This document shows, piece by piece, positions 5,286 to 14,109 of a stretch of DNA of 64,000 nucleotides. The notes below the pieces were generated by a model, which saw nothing but the letters and a program-made list of their open reading frames with translations, had not been told where the DNA came from and did not search any database. Position 1 is the first letter of the stretch. Every line of letters begins with the position of its first letter. Position numbers and translations under genes: made by a program. The DNA comes from Mortierella sp. BCC40632 (lineage: Eukaryota; Mortierellomycota; Mortierellomycetes; Mortierellales; Mortierellaceae), in NCBI GenBank assembly GCA_011634665.1, contig WAEK01000004.1:772001-836000 (forward strand). The letters run 5' to 3'.

Positions 5286-5818
5286 AGAGATCCAGATGCA
5301 AAGAGAGAGAAAGAGATAGAGATAGAAATGATGGTAATAAAATTAGGCACAGTATTAATGGGGATTCAGCAGAAGTGAAGCAAAACCGATGCTACCCATC
5401 AAGGAATAAAGCAGCTGAGGCAAAGGAAAAGACTATCCTTCATGGCAATTGCCGTTGTCAATGCCCCACGGAACCTGCAAAAAAATAAAATCGAGATGAC
5501 CAGAATTAAGGCCAAGGTCAACAGGCAGCTCCTGCTCCGACTTGCAAGGCTTTTCTCTCTCTCACAGACACCTTTTCTCTCTCACTCCATCCCTCTGTCT
5601 GTCTGTCTGTCTGTCTGTCTTTTTTTTTTTTTTTTGCACTCTCCGCCCCACCCTCCATCAAGCCCAGCATACGAGACCAGCTAGAGCAAATCGACCCCTT
5701 CACCCCTTCTCAAAGGCTGGAGAAGAGCAAGAGCAAGAATCCCACAGAACTAACAATAAAAATTATTTCGGTGACATAATTAGGAAATGTCACAATTTTG
5801 GCTGTGCCAGAGGACTGT
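4563..5818. other. Spacer upstream of DAHP synthase
   Basis: Contains the DAHP synthase promoter side and the region beyond the 3' end of the MULE remnant. It has a poly-T run (about 5252-5284), a (CTGT)n tract at about 5595-5620 followed by poly-T, and a short inverted repeat GTGACAT/ATGTCAC at 5771-5793. A 20-codon frame starts at 4932 on the minus strand and ends in a splice-like GTAAGT, but I could not extend it into a gene. Confidence 0.5.
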
Positions 5819-8521
5819 TTATTTGAGTTCTTGGGCTAAGTTCACAGTCTCCTCTAGCTTGGCAACGGTGCCTTGGAGATCCTTCCATGCACAATGGCGC
5901 TTTCTGGGACTGTCAATAATAACGCTCAGTTCACTCCAGAGTCTCTTCAACTTGGCGTAGCTATCTTTCATCTCTGCTGCTCTAGCTTCTTCCCTTTTCA
6001 TTTTCTCATCTCTTTGTCTAACTTTCCTTTGTACCTCCAGCTGGTAGATCAGGGTCTGGTGAGATAATGCTCTCTCGAGGGAATCCCTGAAGCCTTTTCA
6101 GAAAGTTTTGACTCCTGTATCCGAGTTTTCTCTGGCTCGCTCAAAGTAGGCGATTTTATGCCTACCGTAGATCCTTGCAATTAGGTACATGTGCTTGCAG
6201 GGTATCCGATGTCTCGTGTAGTCGGGACACGAACATGAGCAAAGGGCATCCTTCTCGTGATCCAAAGCTACCGAATACTCTACCCAGGAACGCTAAAGGA
6301 TTTGACAATGAACTGCAATAGTGTACAGCGGTCAGGATTAATCCCACACAGTATTAATAGAGTAGGTACCTGTTGATACATACCGCATGGGCTGCTACGT
6401 TCTCTGCAACCATTGCTTTGGCGGTACCAACATCCAATGCCATGGCTTCCTTTTCTCTCTCACCATCATACTCAGAGTGCTTCACTGGTTGAACGCCATG
6501 ATCAACCTTGAGAAGTTGAGCCTTGAAGTCTCTTTCTATCTCTCCTTGCAGCAAGAACATGACAACATCAGCCCTGTATCCAGTCTTGCCATCGAGGTAA
6601 TGAGATTTGAGGGTATGGAACCATGATTCCAATAGATTGTTTGTGTCGACATGTTGATAATTCTATTGGCGACAAAAAAGAGATTTGAGTGGAGAAGTCC
6701 ATATCTCACCCATCATAGCAAATCATTCCGCATACCTCTCGGACGAAAAGTACCCACTTCATTCTCTTTTCGCAACTAAGCCAATTTCGCTCAAGGAAAG
6801 TACAAAAGCGTTCAGTCCCTGGAAAGGCGACTTTAAACTTTTGCCACAATCCATCCAGCTCCTCATTTGATCTAGCACCGCGTATGGCTTTAAGTGCAGG
6901 CTCCATTTGGCCCCAGTGTCTCTTCTATCGGAGAGCAAGACCCGTTAATTTAATGAATGTCAATGGCTTTTGATATCATTCACGATAACTCTCGCGTACA
7001 TTGCAATCTTTTCTCATGCGCCTCTCCCATATCTGGGCCACATGGAAGAGGCAATAATAGATGGCAGTTTGAGGGAAGATGGCTTGAACAGCCTCCGTCT
7101 CTATTGGCGAGCAATCCATCATGAACTTTTTGACACTTTAAACTGGCATGTATCCTTGAGCCAGCTTAGCCACTTCTTGAGCAGAAACCTACAGACCTTA
7201 GTTAGGGACGATGCCATGGTTCAAGCTACTAGTTTTACTGGAACAGAGCCAATTTCTTACGTGGATTCGGTACTGCAAATCAAGTATGCAATGGGAAAGC
7301 CTTTCTGTAACACGACATCCTTGACGAGGATGGTAAACAAAGCCGAAGCTTCTCTGATCTTTTTGACATTAGGCATCAACGGTCTGAACACTTTATGTGT
7401 GGAGTCCATGCAAGCTATGAGGCAGTTGCGATGCATAATCTAACGGGGCACGCATACAATGAAGTAGATTAGAGTCGACTATGAATGCACTAGCATAGTG
7501 ATACTAACGTAAATTCATACTTAACCCTACCCCTAACTGGAATTTTGTGCACCATGCAATCATGTACGACTTCTCTTTGCCTTCCGTCTCGATCTGGAAC
7601 ATGCCTTCTCCTCCTCTCATCTTGATGTCCTTGATCCAGAGGTGAACGCTTTTGAAGATATCCTGGTCTTTAGTGGCCTCTTTCATCTGCCGACGATAAA
7701 ACACGCCATGCACATCCTTGTAGTTGATCAATAGACTAGAGGAGAGAGCACTGTTGTGTTCAAGCTTGTTGGAAAGGTTCTTAGTATTTGTGTAGACTCA
7801 TCACTGTTGCATTGAGTGGCAATGACTTACCAAGCAGAGGTTGTCTTCGCTGGGTATGAGTCGTTTTTGGATTCCCTTCCAGTCAAGTCCTTGGTCGACG
7901 TTCGACTTGATCCAATTTAACTCATTCGCACCCAAGGGCAAACGTGCCCTGTCTGACATAGAAGTTCCGTGGTTGTGTTTCCAATAATACTCGACAACGA
8001 CACAGTCGTTCCCCATGGGCTTCTGGATTCTGATATGCGCCTTGCATCCTGTACCAACTGATTCCCTTTGTAGATGTGTTTTACTCGAGGGCCGCCGCCT
8101 GCAATCATATCGTACTGTCCAGTCGAAGCTCCTTGGTCGGCCTGGCCCTATGTGCAATTCCTTATGAGTTGGAAGGGGGTTGTCCAAGCTTCCATTGTCA
8201 AAGACAATACTGCGAGAGTTTTCTTCGCTGCAGCGTAGCCATTGGAAGGTTATCTCGTTCTTGGTTCCAGAACTGTTTAAATCCATCGACTGAGAAGACC
8301 ATTCGAAGAGGAATAGGTGAATCAACAGGGATAGGATGAGGGCCGACAACGGCATTAATGTCATAGTCAGGCGAGTAGGGCAAGATGTCTCTGGCTGTCG
8401 GGGGATGCATTGCTGATGTGGTTGATGAGAACGATGCAATCATGCAAAAGCACCTGATATCATTTTCTGGGTCGCTTAAGCCACATTTCTCACAAGCAAT
8501 AAAAAGGCTTCTGTCTTCCAA
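5819..8521 (-). pseudogene. Decayed Mutator-like (MULE) transposase with SWIM zinc finger
   Basis: Remnant of a MULE transposase. Read on the minus strand: an N-terminal part with CKAHIRI and WKHNHG motifs (FAR1/MULE-type DNA-binding region, about 7830-8100); the DDE core with ACMDSTHK (Asp codon 7404-7406) and FMMDCSPIETEAV (Asp codon 7114-7116) followed by CLFHVAQ; NNLLESWFHTLKSHYL; a SWIM finger CSC...CKH at about 6185-6240; and a charged coiled-coil tail ending at 5819. Frame damage is clear: a one-base shift near 8240, an in-frame TAA at 7138-7140 and an in-frame TGA at 6098-6100. Several segments are joined by plausible short introns, so it is an old copy of an intron-bearing element. 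It starts head-to-head with the Fanzor-type gene. Confidence 0.85.
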
Positions 8522-8563
8522 CCTTGTCCTCTGACCCCATGCGCCATCGCAATCAGTTTCTTG
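8522..8563. promoter_or_regulatory. 42-bp divergent spacer between MULE and XPG-Fanzor starts
   Basis: Only 42 bp separate the first Met of the minus-strand transposase frame (8521) from the ATG of the plus-strand nuclease gene (8564). If both starts are right, the two genes share a bidirectional promoter or overlap in their 5' untranslated parts. No core promoter motif is recognisable. The transposase start is the weaker of the two. Confidence 0.35.
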
Positions 8564-9703
8564 ATGGGAGTCATCGGACTATGGGGATTCATTCGAAGAA
8601 AGGGGTACCACCCAAAAAATCACTCACAGCCACCGCATCCACCATCGTCCGGAACTAAGATCAGAGTTGATCTTTTATCATCCTTTTTATCCGACAATTA
8701 ACTATGCTTATTTCCATCATTACGATAAATCCATTGCTCACAAGATCCTCGAAGAGACCATCACTCGGCTTGGTGGCAAGGACGATATTGTGGTTTACAT
8801 CGACGGCGGACAAGCAAAGGAAAAAGAGGCTACTCAACTTCACCGAGCAGGGTTACGCCAAAAATCTCTTGATCGAGCTAACCATGCCCTTGATAACATC
8901 GAACAACGAGTATCAAGCAGAAAAACAGTTAAAAAGCATCACATAAACAATGTCAGCAAATATTTGCGGAAGGCGTTCCATTGGCAAGAAAGTGATCGAA
9001 GAGGATTCTTTGACTACATGTTTGAGAACGGATGGGATGTAAGATGGTGTATCACGGAAGCTGATATCGAGATCGCCACAGATTGTCAACCTCAAGATAT
9101 CGTCGTTTCAAAAGACAGCGATCTTCTTGTTTACCGTGCAGTTCGACAGCTTTTTGACGACCAATGGGCTGTTGGAAGAGAGTATGGTACCAAGTTTACG
9201 ACAAGTCGGCTGTCCTTGACTCGCTGGACTTTGATGACAATCAGCTTCTCGCTCTTGCAATTGTCAGTCATAACGATTACAGCAAAAATGTATTTTCACT
9301 TGGACTCGAATCCAATTACACAATTATCAGAGAACTTTTGGGCGAAGGTACTGTACTGGTTGCGATGAAATGAACGACTGCAACGGTATGTTCTTCCGAT
9401 TGTTTTTTTTTATCTAACTTTCTTTTTCCTCACAGACGTTGAGAAAATAGTACGGGAGTACTTGTTACACGATCGCGTTCAGTCCAAGAATATCAGCAAA
9501 GAAGATTTTGCAATTTCAACCCGGGTTTTCGCAACCCTCAAGCAGACGTCCGTTACCGCTACCAGTCCATTCAGCGAATGCGACAAGGATGTCGGTGTCC
9601 TCCGCAAACGCCTGTCAGACATCATCAAGAACCAGAGAGAGCAGCGGAGAGCAGACTATTTGGCTCGGAAAGAGAGAAGAAGGTGGGGTTAACACCTATT
9701 CCT

Positions 9704-9705
<2 letters not shown>

Positions 9706-9742
<37 letters not shown>
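9706..9742. repeat. Poly-A tract (37 nt) in an intron of the XPG-Fanzor gene
   Basis: Uninterrupted A run inside the second likely intron. The flanking exons do not rejoin cleanly in phase, so this intron may also hold an indel. Confidence 0.9.
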
Positions 9743-9743
<1 letters not shown>

Positions 9744-9970
9744 CATGTTAATCAATCTCTTTGTACATACGATACATCGATAGAGTTTGCTCGAAAATCA
9801 AGAGCCAGTGGCTACGATTAAGCATCGACCCTTCTTTACCAATGACAGACAAGGTCGAAAGAGATATTCTTACAAACAACGAAATGAAGCGACTAAGAGG
9901 TACGATCCACCAGACAAGCTGCTTCAATACCAGTGGAAACCTCACAGGGAAAATGCCGGTGCAGCCACGC

Positions 9971-10072
9971 AACTGGAGGGTAATACCAGTTCAACCATGC
10001 AACCGGGGGGGGGATGCCAGTTCGAACACGCAACCGGGAGGAAATGTCAGTTCAACCACGCAACCGGTACCT
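9971..10072 (+). repeat. 30-bp tandem repeat encoding a Gly/Ser/Thr/Gln/Pro linker
   Basis: About three and a half copies of a 30-bp unit, each starting GCAAC(C/T)GG and containing CCAGTTC or TCAGTTC. In the right frame they give ten-residue units of the type TQPGGNVSST. The second copy carries a run of nine G (10005-10013), where the frame changes by one base. The repeat lies between the PIN-like and Fanzor parts. Confidence 0.85.
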
Positions 10073-11527
10073 GCGAAGAAGATACCAAAGATCCGAAACA
10101 AGATAAAAAACGCTAGTAAAAAAAAACTGTTGCAGGAGATGGAATGGGAGCACCCCACGGTTTCCCTCGATATGGGCTCCCTCAAGACCAATGTTGAAAA
10201 GGCTGTCCCAGATCAAACACTTGCGAGCCAAGTTGTTTCATGTATCCAGAAAGCCGTCCGGGAAGCTTCTCGTGTCAAACGCCGATGCGAAGAACTCCTT
10301 GGCCGATATCTCGATGTGATAGTGTTAGCTGATGGTGACATCTGTAATGAAGACCAAGCGTTCTTAGACTATCTTTGTCCTCACGAGGATGAAGACGAAA
10401 GCACCGGCGCAAGCGACGCGATTTTGTGGAAGACTGCCCCGCAGACAAGGACAAAACAGGCGCGTTTATCCACTCACTTATGACTTATCTGTACAGCGGG
10501 AATCTCTCGACCAAGAAAAGCGGAACCGGTGCAGTAGTCAACAAGTTTATCAAGCGTCTACAAAACTCTAGGCTTTGTTACCTGAACCAGACGCGAAGGA
10601 CTTTCTCAATCCACCAAACAAAAAAGACTTTACTCCGTCGTCACTTGTGAGATCGGTAGCCAAGCAACTCGCAACTGCATTGAAGAAACACTGGCGGCAA
10701 GGCTGCCGAAAGCTCTCAGAAGAGGTTAGTAATCTTCGATATGACATCAATAATCAATATCTAGCCTGCCGAACCACTGACTCATACTTTTGTCATCAAA
10801 AATTAGCTATGCCGGCAAAGAGGACAAGGACGATGGCCCATCGTATTTAATTTCGATATGGGAATGCGGAAGCACGTCCCGGTCTTCGAGTCATTCGCGT
10901 GGTTTAACAGCCTCGTCGCCCGCCCGTGGCAGACAATCCCATTGTCACCTTTCGCAGATGGCTTTATGAATTTTACGGAGTACGAGGTGGGACAGTTTCT
11001 ATCAAAGGTACCCGAGTTACAAGCACACCTAAAGGGGATAATGGATGGTACCGAGGAGAGCGAGTTTACACAAATAGCACTTGTCCGCGATTGGCTACCT
11101 GGACAGGAACCCGGCAGCCTAATTAAGCACCTTATCTTGGATACCTCAGTGGAGGGACTCACCTCAAGACAGAAGGGAAAGGCAGGGTTAAAGGCATTGG
11201 TCCGGCACTTCACATTTCAACAGACCGAAGACCATATCAACGAACTCAGGGATCCCTCGTTTGACCCACGAGAGTACAATGAGAAAGGATACGTGTTACG
11301 AGGCTCCATTCAGACGAATGGGAGCTTGCTTCGGCTGCTTGCTTTTCAAGATACGAGAGCTCAATTCAGTTCGCTTCAAGAGATACAGTGCAGCTCGCAT
11401 GCCCAGTCGTATCACGTCGGATACCGGAGGAACTGACGGATTCTTGAAAGAAATACGAAATGTCGCAAGCTCTGTTCAGGATGTTCGTGAACTTTGGGAT
11501 TGTTCGCAAGACGAAACCAAGGACGTT

Positions 11528-12468
11528 TCATATCTCGGTATCGACCTAGGCGTGACCTGCGTTGTTGGGGCATGTGCCATTCTACCCGACGGCAATAACC
11601 CCAAAAGCAGAAAAAGGAAGAATCGAGGCAAGAGAAAACGAGGAGGAAAAAGAAAACGAGGATGTAGAGGTGGCAAAAACAGACACGGCAAAACGATCAA
11701 TATGGATGTAGAAGAAAACGGACAAGAGATGGATAAGGATCGAGCTAGGTTTATCAACCTGGTTGTCAAACAAAAGGCAACTTACCAACCATTATTCAAA
11801 TTCAGGCGATGGCTTGAAGAAAAAAAACAACGCAAAACAATACCGGACCAGGATGGGCATGGCCCCAGGTCCATCAAAGATGTGGAATCTTTACTTCCGG
11901 CGCGACGTGGCAAGGACTGTAGCATGTCTTCCTATTTCGATCAAGTAGCCAATTATTGGCAATACCTCGACAGTTTCTATAATGGTCACGACCAAACATT
12001 CAATCGAATGAGGCGCTGTCTAAAACGAGAAATGGATACCGAGTACAGACTGATCACGGACAGCTTACTACGTATGGTCGGCGGTAACATTGGCGCGAGG
12101 CGCGACAAATCCGACAAAGTGATAATTGGAATCGGTCTCGGGGAATTTTCCTCAACATCTGGACTATCCTCGAGACACAGTTCATTCCTTGACTACTTCA
12201 CTCGGAAGGTATGCACCAATCACGTTTACAATCAACTGGCCTGTCTCCTACACTGTACTGACAGTCTTCATTGGTACTTTGTGCATAGGCAAGGTCTCTC
12301 GGTTATGTAGTTGTCGGAGTGAATGAATTTTATTCATCAAAAATGTCCAAGGTGCCAAAACTTTTGGCACAAACAATCTCTATCCGGAGACTTTACTGCC
12401 AGAAGTGTCAATGGTTCCAGCACCGAGACCTGATTGCAGGCGAGAACATTGCAAGAGTCCTCAAAAGG
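11528..12468 (+). other. Fanzor/TnpB RuvC core with split catalytic D-E-D
   Basis: Domain entry within the larger unit. RuvC-I (GIDLG), RuvC-II (GLGEFSS) and RuvC-III (HRDLIAGENI) are all present with their acidic residues. RuvC-III lies in a separate exon after a phase-0 intron at 12209-12288. A lysine/arginine-rich block at about 11599-11690 follows RuvC-I and could serve as a nuclear localisation signal or bind RNA. The zinc ribbon keeps its second pair (YCQKC), but the first CPxC pair is out of frame: one shift enters near 12343 and a compensating shift leaves near 12363. Confidence 0.85.
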
Positions 12469-12675
12469 GTTTATCGAAACTCAAGAAAGGCCCGAATATC
12501 TCCAACCGACGGATATCAACGGCGTTGTTTTTATGGAAGCGGCCAAGTCAGCCGCCGTGTCACAAGCGGAAGTGGCAAGAGATAGAAGGGGAACATTAGC
12601 TTAGGTCTCATATTTTTTTTTGGTGTGTTGCACACACACAGAAGCATTTCGCTTCACTCAGATCGGCATGCAATC

Positions 12676-12709
12676 GCGGCTGAAAATACGGTGACGTAAT
12701 TTCAGCCGC
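12676..12709. promoter_or_regulatory. Near-perfect hairpin containing a CRE-like TGACGTAA
   Basis: A 10-bp inverted repeat (GCGGCTGAAA/TTTCAGCCGC) encloses a second 4-bp one (TACG/CGTA) after a single A-A mismatch, with a GTGA loop. The core holds TGACGTAA, close to ATF/CREB sites. It lies 107 bp upstream of the F1 delta-subunit ATG and 91 bp after the Fanzor stop, so it could be a promoter element or part of the element's right end. Confidence 0.55.
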
Positions 12710-12815
12710 CGATGCGTGGCTTTCTTGCAAATGGTTGTTCGGCGGGTCCTGTATAGGGAAAGGCAGGAATGGATCTCTTGACACTCTGCATCCATCTGCG
12801 TACCCTTCACTCACC

Positions 12816-14109
12816 ATGAACTTCCTCGCTCGCTCTGTCCGCGTTATCCGACCCGTGCGCTTGGGTAATGGGTCTTGTCCTTTGTGTTCTACTCTTTACT
12901 TTATTGCCATCGAAAAGAAAAAGAGAGTGACTCCACCATCATCAGCACACACCCACACACCCACATACTCTCACTCTCTCACGCCACACCAGAAACAGAA
13001 GACCAGGAAGAAGAAAAACAAAGGGCAGCGAACTGATGATCAGAATCCACTGGACAGGATCGGGAAGAAGATTGAGTCCATTTCTCTAAGCATTTATCCG
13101 ACCCAACCATTAGTCTGTAGCCATCATCAGACGATCATGGTCGCCATGGAGCTTCTATTCTCCAGCAGACGCGAACATTCCCAAAACCCAAAACCCAAAA
13201 AAAAAAAAAAAAAAAAAAAGCTTCATCCCAAGAATCCAATAGTTGCTAATCAACCCTTGTCGCCTCCTCCCACTACCTTCCTTGCTTAAACTATAGCTCG
13301 CACCTATGCCTCTGAGGCTGCCACCACTGGTCTCCGCTTGACCTTTGCCGTTCCTCACCAGGTGGGTACCGATGGACTTGATCCTCTTATCCAAAAACAG
13401 CAACATCATGATACTCTGCCTATTCTTTTCTATAGAGTTTGACCAGCATTTCTCTCTTTCTCTCTATAGACTCTCTACAAGAACGTCAATGTCACCCAGG
13501 TCAACATTGCTGCCGATTCTGGAGACATGGGTATCCTCGCCAGCCACGTTGCTTCGATTGAGCAGCTTCGCCCCGGCATTGTTGAGGTCATTGAGGCCGC
13601 TGGCTCCAAGAAGTTCTTTGGTATGTGCATAGAATCTCTATTCCTCTCTTTGATAGAGGGTTTATCACATGGATCACAGTGGGATTGAAAACAAAAGCAA
13701 CATATCAAAATCTAGGGATGAAGAATATCTTGCAAACGGTCAATATGACCTGATGGATCAAGTCTCCCTTTGGCAGATTCTCAGGGTGAACAACAAAAAA
13801 ACAACAAAAAAAAAAAAAAAACTACGCGACTGACAGTGGCCTCTCTTTTCTCTTCTTTTTTTAATACCTTTTATTTGTAAATTCTCCCTAGTCTCTGGAG
13901 GCTTCGCTACTATGAACCCCGACTCGTCGCTCAACATCAACGCTGTCGAGGCTTTCCCCGTCGAGGACTTTAGCCCCGAAACCATCCGCCACAACTTGGC
14001 TGAGGCTCAGCGTGTTGTCAACTCGGGTGCCACCGAGGAGGAGAAGATTGCTGCCAAGATCGAGGTTGAGGTTCTCGAGTCCCTCCAGGCTGCTCTCAGC
14101 ACCAAGTAA
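12816..14109 (+). CDS. ATP16: Mitochondrial F1 ATP synthase delta subunit
   Basis: Central-stalk subunit of F1-ATPase (homologue of bacterial epsilon), acting in the mitochondrial matrix. Exons: 12816-12864, 13297-13361, 13470-13620 and 13892-14109; 483 nt, 160 residues, the usual size. The N-terminus MNFLARSVRVIRPVRLG followed by ARTYASEA is a basic, acid-free mitochondrial presequence. The mature part has LRLTFAVPHQ, VNIAADSGDMGILASHV and IEQLRPGIVEV, typical of the delta/epsilon beta-sandwich, followed by VSGGFA and a C-terminal helical hairpin rich in Ala and Glu. Intron 1 is long (432 bp) and carries a CA-rich and poly-A stretch. The CRE-like hairpin lies just upstream. Confidence 0.94.

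What the first reader, a model, noticed from the sequence alone, without database searches (positions are those of the whole stretch)
8564..12585. An XPG/FEN-like PIN nuclease and a Fanzor (TnpB-like) RNA-guided nuclease occur as one gene-length unit
Seen: MGVIGLWGFI start with XPG-type acidic motifs (YIDGG, EADIEIA, SKDSDLL) at the 5' end, and RuvC-I/II/III motifs with D-E-D plus a partial zinc ribbon at the 3' end, all on one strand, linked by a disordered repeat and exons with matching style, with no stop-plus-start pair that would suggest two genes. Known: Fanzors are eukaryotic TnpB relatives guided by an RNA made at the element's end. Inference: the family pairs a flap-type structure-specific nuclease with an RNA-guided cutter in one polypeptide, which could process the cut ends or the guide RNA.
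Basis: partly seen in the sequence, partly recalled or inferred. Interest (0 to 1): 0.9.

Follow-up and report, generated by a model that had tools for sequence, protein, structure and literature searches.

The report
Fanzor nuclease fused to flap nuclease
Mortierella-type fungi carry mobile DNA elements whose single large gene joins an EXO1/FEN1-type DNA-end-trimming nuclease to a Fanzor RNA-guided DNA cutter; the copy in this window is a dead relic, but an intact copy and annotated fused proteins exist, and what the partnership does is not yet known.

The parts
5783..12724 (.). Mobile element (family A) that carries the gene; MULE-like, about 6.9 kb
   Evidence: The end ...GATGCGTGGCTTTC is shared by 5 of 5 near-identical copies with unrelated flanks behind it; BLAST homology to the window stops at 12724 in three of the four others and at 12725 in one (one base by chance). 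The left end GGAAATGTCAC... is shared with two copies (C3, C15); two others (C2, C25) match only from 5805. 8-bp target duplications in 3 of 5 copies (C3 CCACTACC, C15 TAGTCCGA, C2 AAAAAAAG, the last of low complexity); none found for the window copy or C25.
5822..8439 (-). Degenerate MULE-type transposase gene, divergent from the fusion gene
   Evidence: Broken ORFs: FAR1-like N-terminus E 0.0021 (below the Pfam cut-off), SWIM zinc finger E 5.4e-8 (above it) at 6101-6292. MULE assignment from domain order is recalled knowledge.
8564..12599 (+). XPG-Fanzor fusion pseudogene
   Evidence: All modules collinear in changing frames; 98-99% identical DNA in four other copies.
8564..9337 (+). XPG/FEN/EXO1-type nuclease core: MG N-terminus, RVD, YIDGG..K..R, EADIEIA, SKDSD, NDY and the helix-turn-helix part
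   Evidence: HMM matches on L039, which is the window stretch; fold of homologue P0002.
9435..9689 (+). C-terminal helices of the XPG part (DVEKIVREYLLHD...) after a presumed intron
   Evidence: same exon order in the intact contig-9 gene.
9859..9948 (+). Conserved basic linker block (KRYSYKQRNEATKRYDPPDKLLQYQWKPHR)
   Evidence: Resembles the linker block of the A1 consensus (RPRYSFK...EH..P...KQ...KPYK.PP).
10145..12599 (+). Fanzor half: REC, WED, RuvC, zinc ribbon
   Evidence: PF07282 in window:12289-12582, E 1.2e-6; fold of homologue P0025.
11531..11572 (+). RuvC-I (IDLG, catalytic Asp)
   Evidence: Asp conserved in 14 of 14 rows of A1.
12310..12429 (+). Relocated RuvC glutamate (NEFYSS), zinc ribbon cysteines and RuvC-III HRD, split over two frames here
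   Evidence: Glu in 13 of 14, HRD Asp in 14 of 14 rows of A1.
12600..12724 (+). Candidate omega/reRNA scaffold: hairpin 12623-12637, terminal stem 12677-12708 with apical GGTGAC, then the element end
   Evidence: Inference; no RNA data.

Best explanation
It is a dead copy of a mobile-element gene of a Mortierellomycete-type fungus that encodes one polypeptide: a 5'-nuclease of the XPG/FEN1/EXO1 superfamily, a basic linker, and a Fanzor1-type RNA-guided nuclease. Shown by computation: the fusion, both folds, both sets of active-site residues, its home in an element with a defined right end, and a folded non-coding stretch between stop codon and right end. Inferred: that stretch is the guide-RNA scaffold, and the guide comes from the flank beyond the element end, as in other Fanzor/TnpB elements. 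Inferred mechanism: the Fanzor half cuts an empty site (sister or allele) in an RNA-guided way, and the XPG half, held at the break, resects or trims the 5' ends (EXO1-like) or removes 5' flaps (FEN1-like), so that repair copies the element into the gap instead of end-joining. My estimate: architecture about 0.95, 5'-end processing in cis about 0.45.
For: Intact gene: contig 9, start 2242145, stop codon ending 2246631 (L047 5730-5732), six exons, five GT-AG introns of 84-97 bases, 1346 aa without a stop. In another copy (L051, itself broken further upstream) one 395-aa stop-to-stop ORF runs from the XPG tail through the linker into the Fanzor N-terminus. 18 of 54 homologues hold both motif sets. 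Three deposited proteins (P0014, P0017, P0019) carry precomputed PF00867 and PF07282 together. XPG residues in the 14 rows of A1 (P0002 numbering): D85, K92, R99, E170, D172, D191, D242 in 14 of 14, D189 in 13 of 14, D42 in 10 of 14 (3 gaps). RuvC D847 and D1097 in 14 of 14, relocated E1061 in 13 of 14. Folds. dN/dS below 1 in both halves of L055/L057: XPG 0.29, Fanzor 0.16. For the mechanism: several EXO1 matches are complexes with 5' recessed-end DNA; a passage of Saito 2023 reports that a tested Fanzor leaves 3' overhangs, which have recessed 5' ends; that paper's discussion describes cut-and-copy for TnpB and considers it for Fanzor (passage).
Against: No transcript, protein or activity data. 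21 of 46 zinc-ribbon loci showed no XPG match upstream; of these I read two (L059, L060), where the Fanzor match starts mid-protein and no XPG lies upstream, so XPG-less pieces exist and I cannot say whether any works. Of the 20 loci fetched only the contig-9 copy was modelled as intact; I saw breaks in several others and did not score each. dN/dS for L048 pairs is higher (0.37-0.58). The chosen roles rest on analogy with EXO1/FEN1. The relative placement of the two halves in the whole-chain model is not reliable (pTM 0.52).
Confidence: 0.5

Rival explanations
1. The XPG half serves the transposition reaction (processing of element ends, branched or gapped intermediates left by the MULE transposase) and not the RNA-guided cut.
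For: The window gene lies beside a divergent MULE-like transposase relic inside one element with 8-bp target duplications in 3 of 5 copies. FEN-type nucleases act on branched and gapped DNA (recalled).
Against: In family C (L049/L051/L048) the shared stretch begins about 140-160 bases before the start codon and covers little more than the fusion gene, so the fusion is not tied to a transposase gene. A trans-acting end processor need not be in the same polypeptide as the guide-RNA nuclease.
Confidence: 0.2
2. The XPG half trims the guide RNA or the displaced strand of the R-loop, i.e. it matures or extends the RNA-guided complex.
For: A folded 3' stretch directly behind the gene would have to be processed out of a transcript; FEN-type enzymes thread 5' single-stranded flaps (recalled).
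Against: Fanzors shown to cut DNA with their RNA belong to a family given as 400-700 aa, too small to hold such a domain as well (PMC10432273, passages). The catalytic set is that of DNA-acting EXO1/FEN1.
Confidence: 0.12
3. The XPG half is now a passive DNA-binding or scaffold domain.
For: Of the 32 rows of A2, two change D189 (one G, one N), one changes K92 and two change R99.
Against: Seven catalytic or arch residues invariant in 14 of 14 rows of A1; dN/dS 0.29 for the XPG half of L055/L057.
Confidence: 0.1
4. Two separate genes or transcripts that gene callers join by mistake.
For: All gene models are predictions; no cDNA was available.
Against: A continuous 395-aa ORF bridges both halves in L051; all five introns of the contig-9 gene preserve frame; the linker holds a conserved peptide block; gene models from seven genera agree.
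Confidence: 0.05

Closest known systems
Fanzor1 (SpuFz1, GtFz1, PpFz1)
   Same: Fold of the C-terminal half (top seven Foldseek and top seven VIA matches are all Fanzor1 chains), relocated RuvC glutamate, zinc ribbon, TDG/TNG motif, folded non-coding 3' region, transposon home.
   Different: Extra N-terminal XPG/EXO1-type nuclease and linker (about 1,170-1,360 aa in the longer models against 400-700 aa given for Fanzors in PMC10432273, passage); mostly D[LGAM]G instead of DPG in RuvC-I.
EXO1 / FEN1 / XPG (Rad2) 5'-nuclease superfamily
   Different: Only about 12-18% identity to EXO1/FEN1 chains in the rows; fused to an RNA-guided nuclease; Pfam XPG_I reached in only some members (16 of 32 at E 0.01).
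MULE-borne and Mucor Fanzor1 elements of Bao and Jurka 2013 (ROr-4, PBl-3, MCi-4; MCi-2)
   Same: Fanzor1 carried in MuDR-type elements of early-diverging fungi; MCi-2 with fuzzy 5' and near-identical 3' parts (section 12 read).
   Different: The terms XPG and PIN domain do not occur in that paper's main text (supplements not seen); 8-bp instead of 9-bp duplications here.
Engineered Cas-exonuclease fusions (T5 exonuclease-FnCas12a, Cas9-TREX2)
   Same: RNA-guided cutter fused to an end-trimming nuclease (passages of PMC11471210).
   Different: Man-made; other exonucleases (that TREX2 is unrelated to XPG is recalled).

Membership tests
Fanzor1 | Fanzor1 fold (REC/WED/RuvC/TNB) | tested here: met
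Fanzor1 | Relocated RuvC glutamate six residues before the zinc finger | tested here: met
   E1061 in 13 of 14 rows of A1; definition from PMC10711439 (passage).
Fanzor1 | DPG in RuvC-I (described as near exclusive, not as an absolute criterion) | tested here: not met
   Window has DLG; of 47 homologues (of 54) with a readable motif 32 L, 7 G, 4 P, 3 A, 1 M. Subfamilies L055/L057 and L061 have DPG together with XPG. I therefore call it Fanzor1-type by structure, a divergent branch.
Fanzor1 | TDG motif in the WED domain | tested here: met
   T in 13 of 14, D in 10 and N in 4 of 14, G in 14 of 14 rows of A1; motif named in PMC10711439 (passage).
Fanzor1 | Guide RNA made from the right end of the element | tested here: inconclusive
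   Conserved folded 3' stretch; no RNA data.
Fanzor1 | RNA-guided DNA cleavage | not testable with these tools
   Needs biochemistry.
XPG/FEN/EXO1 superfamily | Superfamily fold | tested here: met
XPG/FEN/EXO1 superfamily | Seven acidic active-site residues and arch Lys/Arg (roles recalled) | tested here: met
   window retains RVD, YIDG..K..R, EAD, DSD, NDY in broken frames.
XPG/FEN/EXO1 superfamily | 5'-nuclease activity | not testable with these tools
   Needs biochemistry.
MULE (MuDR) element | MULE transposase | tested here: inconclusive
   Degenerate; SWIM 5.4e-8, FAR1 0.0021, no transposase core reached in Pfam on the pieces.
MULE (MuDR) element | Target duplication of 8-11 bp (range recalled) | tested here: met
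   8 bp in 3 of 5 copies, one of them a low-complexity A-run; none found for the window copy or C25. Other superfamilies also make 8-bp duplications (recalled).
MULE (MuDR) element | Terminal inverted repeats | tested here: inconclusive
   No convincing repeat; the local alignment of the ends found only a 7-base match.

The most novel reading that the evidence does not exclude
A natural, self-contained 'cut-and-resect' machine: one eukaryotic transposon protein that makes RNA-guided breaks and immediately resects the 5' ends with its own EXO1-like domain, forcing homologous repair that copies the element to the cut site, i.e. an RNA-programmed homing element that carries its own resection enzyme.
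Probability: 0.35. Interest if true: 0.95.

Novelty: new variant of a known kind. Interest (0 to 1): 0.82.

Why it matters
The biological role of Fanzors is stated to be unknown (PMC10432273, discussion passage). A natural fusion to an apparently intact EXO1/FEN1-type nuclease points at what happens after the cut and makes the question testable: kill one active site at a time and watch repair and copying. It would also be a natural counterpart of the exonuclease-fused Cas enzymes built by engineers (PMC11471210, passages) and a possible source of parts for editing that favours templated repair.

Tried and rejected
Separate neighbouring genes: rejected because of the intact contig-9 gene and the bridging ORF. 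Assembly artefact confined to the window: rejected, since pairs recur at 25 of 46 zinc-ribbon loci and in other genera.

Searches that led nowhere: the search for homologous proteins with the L055 Fanzor ORF gave one hit (P0054) and with alignment A1 only five; in both only the candidates sharing most words were scored, so spread outside Mortierellomycetes is effectively untested. Viral contigs: none of 36 pattern matches was a relative. Rfam (12300-13000 only): one sub-threshold match at 12627-12682 (RF03139, 23.3 bits against a cut-off of 34.7, E 0.017), taken as chance. MAFFT alignment of the hairpins (A4) put arms out of register, so no covariation count was made on it. My SL1 pairing score (100% paired; shuffled columns 57%) used 11 hairpins whose arms I had picked because they pair, so it is not independent evidence; the unbiased count is 15 of 19 loci with a hairpin against 7.5 expected from shuffles, and some of those 15 are other hairpins. 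My notebook calls the first XPG Asp D40; it is D42.

Paper searches: 'Fanzor'+'XPG' 0, 'Fanzor'+'PIN domain' 0, 'TnpB'+'Mortierella' 0, 'Fanzor'+'Mucoromycota' 0, 'TnpB'+'XPG' 1 listed (a Cas12a study, not opened), 'TnpB'+'fused'+'flap endonuclease' 1 listed (on large-cargo integration, not opened); 'Fanzor'+'domain'+'exonuclease' 17, 10 listed; a looser search 185, 15 listed, from which I used only papers already open or PMC11471210. The library lacks most subscription papers and holds only CC0, CC BY and CC BY-SA; a 2023 survey of eukaryotic Fanzors that I recall was not in the listing (40 of 82 papers shown), so I cannot exclude that the fusion is mentioned there or in supplements, none of which I saw.
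Full report
WHAT IS IN THE WINDOW. The reading frame changes about ten times outside presumed introns, the zinc ribbon cysteines are split over two frames, and a poly-A run lies in a presumed intron: this copy is a pseudogene. The window is contig 4, 772001-836000, of an unnamed 49.9-Mb genome; that it is a Mortierellomycete-type fungus is inferred from the relatives below.

THE FUSION IN INTACT FORM. In the same genome a copy on contig 9 (start 2242145, stop codon ending 2246631) reads as six exons with five GT-AG introns of 84-97 bases and gives one 1346-aa protein. In another copy (L051, contig 1, itself broken further upstream) a single stop-to-stop ORF of 395 aa runs from the last XPG helices through the linker into the Fanzor N-terminus. 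A search of 5.8 billion proteins gave 53 homologues, all bearing names of Mortierellomycete genera (I looked up the lineage of one of them and of the source of P0054); the best, P0001 of Mortierella sp. AD094, is 54% identical over 99% of the query; 15 of the 53 are named partial. Of these 53 plus P0054, 18 of 54 hold at least three of four XPG motifs and also the RuvC-I and zinc-ribbon motifs in one predicted protein; the 18 come from seven genera by name (Mortierella, Dissophora, Haplosporangium, Podila, Entomortierella, Linnemannia, Benniella).

PAIRING ACROSS THE GENOME. From the hits, with ten further stretches, I clustered 46 zinc-ribbon loci and 52 XPG loci. 25 of 46 zinc-ribbon loci have an XPG locus within 5.5 kb upstream on the same strand, 0 of 46 on the opposite strand, 3 of 46 downstream on the same strand. 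By XPG density alone about 0.1 would be expected (my arithmetic). Counting all 87 Fanzor clusters, 33 are paired. 21 of the 46 showed no XPG; of these I fetched and read two (L059, L060): the Fanzor match starts mid-protein and no XPG lies upstream. 19 of 52 XPG clusters were unpaired; some may be host repair genes or relics (not examined).

THREE DIVERGENT GROUPS SHARE THE ARCHITECTURE. The main group has D[LGAM]G in RuvC-I, with a few DPG. The L055/L057 group (contigs 18 and 7) has LDPGQ and an XPG part. The L061 group (contig 5; contigs 10 and 17 share its 3' sequence; probably also contig 8) has VDPG, a DEFKTSRQC glutamate-zinc motif and a very divergent XPG ORF with EAD, DSD and NDY motifs, found by the XPG HMM (E 1.4e-17) but by no Pfam family. 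I did not prove an unbroken gene in the L055/L057 or L061 groups.

ACTIVE SITES. In the 14 rows of A1, D85, K92, R99, E170, D172, D191, D242, RuvC D847 and D1097 are in 14 of 14; D189 and the relocated E1061 in 13 of 14; D42 in 10 of 14 with 3 gaps. That K92/R99 correspond to the arch Lys/Arg of FEN1/EXO1 is recalled; one EXO1 entry is titled R92A. In the wider A2 (32 rows) the counts are lower, largely through gaps in partial proteins: for example D85 26 of 32 with 6 gaps, R99 25 of 32 with 5 gaps, E1061 23 of 32 with 7 gaps. Pfam on those 32: TNB in 23, XPG_I in 16, XPG_I_2 in 6 at E 0.01. dN/dS between L055 and L057: XPG 0.29, Fanzor 0.16, zinc exon 0.09; L056/L057 XPG 0.39; L049/L051 0.12 (XPG) and 0.27 (tail, linker and REC); for L048 against L049 or L051 0.42 (XPG), 0.58 (linker and REC), 0.37 (Fanzor), closer to relaxation.

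THE ELEMENT. Five near-identical copies (contigs 2, 3, 4, 15, 25) share the same right terminus at window 12724 with unrelated flanks; the left end is at 5783, with two copies shorter on the left. Three of five have 8-bp duplications, one of them a low-complexity run; for the window copy and contig 25 none was found. A degenerate divergent gene with FAR1-like and SWIM parts fills 5822-8439. MULE-type carriage of Fanzor1 in early fungi is known (PMC3627910, section 12 read).

CANDIDATE GUIDE RNA. Between stop codon and right end lies a stretch of about 120 bases with a first hairpin and a terminal stem around GGTGAC. 15 of 19 loci have a stem of 6 or more within 95 bases of the stop against 7.5 expected. 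CGGTGACGTAAT occurs 49 times in the genome against 7 for the reversed control; 21 of 49 lie within 700 bases downstream of a Fanzor cluster on the same strand, 2 within 6 kb upstream on the same strand, 0 within 2 kb of one on the opposite strand (82 of 87 clusters used). This fits the right-end RNAs described for Fanzor1 (PMC10711439, passages), but no RNA data support it, 28 of 49 sites are elsewhere, and the motif could act as DNA.

MECHANISM AND VERDICT. Shown by computation: fusion, folds, conserved active sites, mobile context. Inferred: RNA-guided cutting followed by 5'-end processing in cis that favours copying of the element. Not shown: any activity or transcript. I rate it a new variant of a known kind (a Fanzor1-type nuclease with a built-in EXO1/FEN1-type nuclease). 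Papers seen: passages of PMC10711439, PMC10432273, PMC11423790 and PMC11471210; passages and section 12 of PMC3627910; others only as search listings.

Noticed in passing
L055, L057 (contigs 18 and 7): Mosaic copies: the XPG halves differ little (dS 0.16) while the Fanzor halves differ much (dS 0.87), suggesting module exchange or gene conversion between copies.
   Followed up: partly
L056 (contig 19): An internally deleted copy keeps the XPG part and the zinc-ribbon exon but lacks the middle, a possible non-autonomous derivative.
   Followed up: partly
window 5767-5804; L045 5808-5823; L064: On contigs 2 and 15 family-A elements sit directly (8 bases) behind the right end of a family-B XPG-Fanzor element; the window copy is preceded by TTCGGTGACATAATTA, a variant of the right-end motif, so element ends may be insertion hot spots.
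   Followed up: partly
window 12816 onward; L046, L048, L052, L054 right flanks: Five right flanks, chosen because an ORF there looked recognisable, lead into a host gene in the same direction: ATP synthase delta/epsilon and ribosomal L2 (above the Pfam cut-off), CHCH, RPB1 and SRP72-like TPR (below it), hinting at insertion just upstream of genes. The other flanks were not tested.
   Followed up: partly
L066, L067 (contigs 1 and 7): Other Fanzor loci, without a detected XPG part, share the exact right end GATGCGTGGCTTTC with family A.
   Followed up: no
genome-wide: 28 of 49 CGGTGACGTAAT sites are not just behind one of the 82 Fanzor clusters used; they could be solo ends or guide-RNA-only relics.
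   Followed up: no
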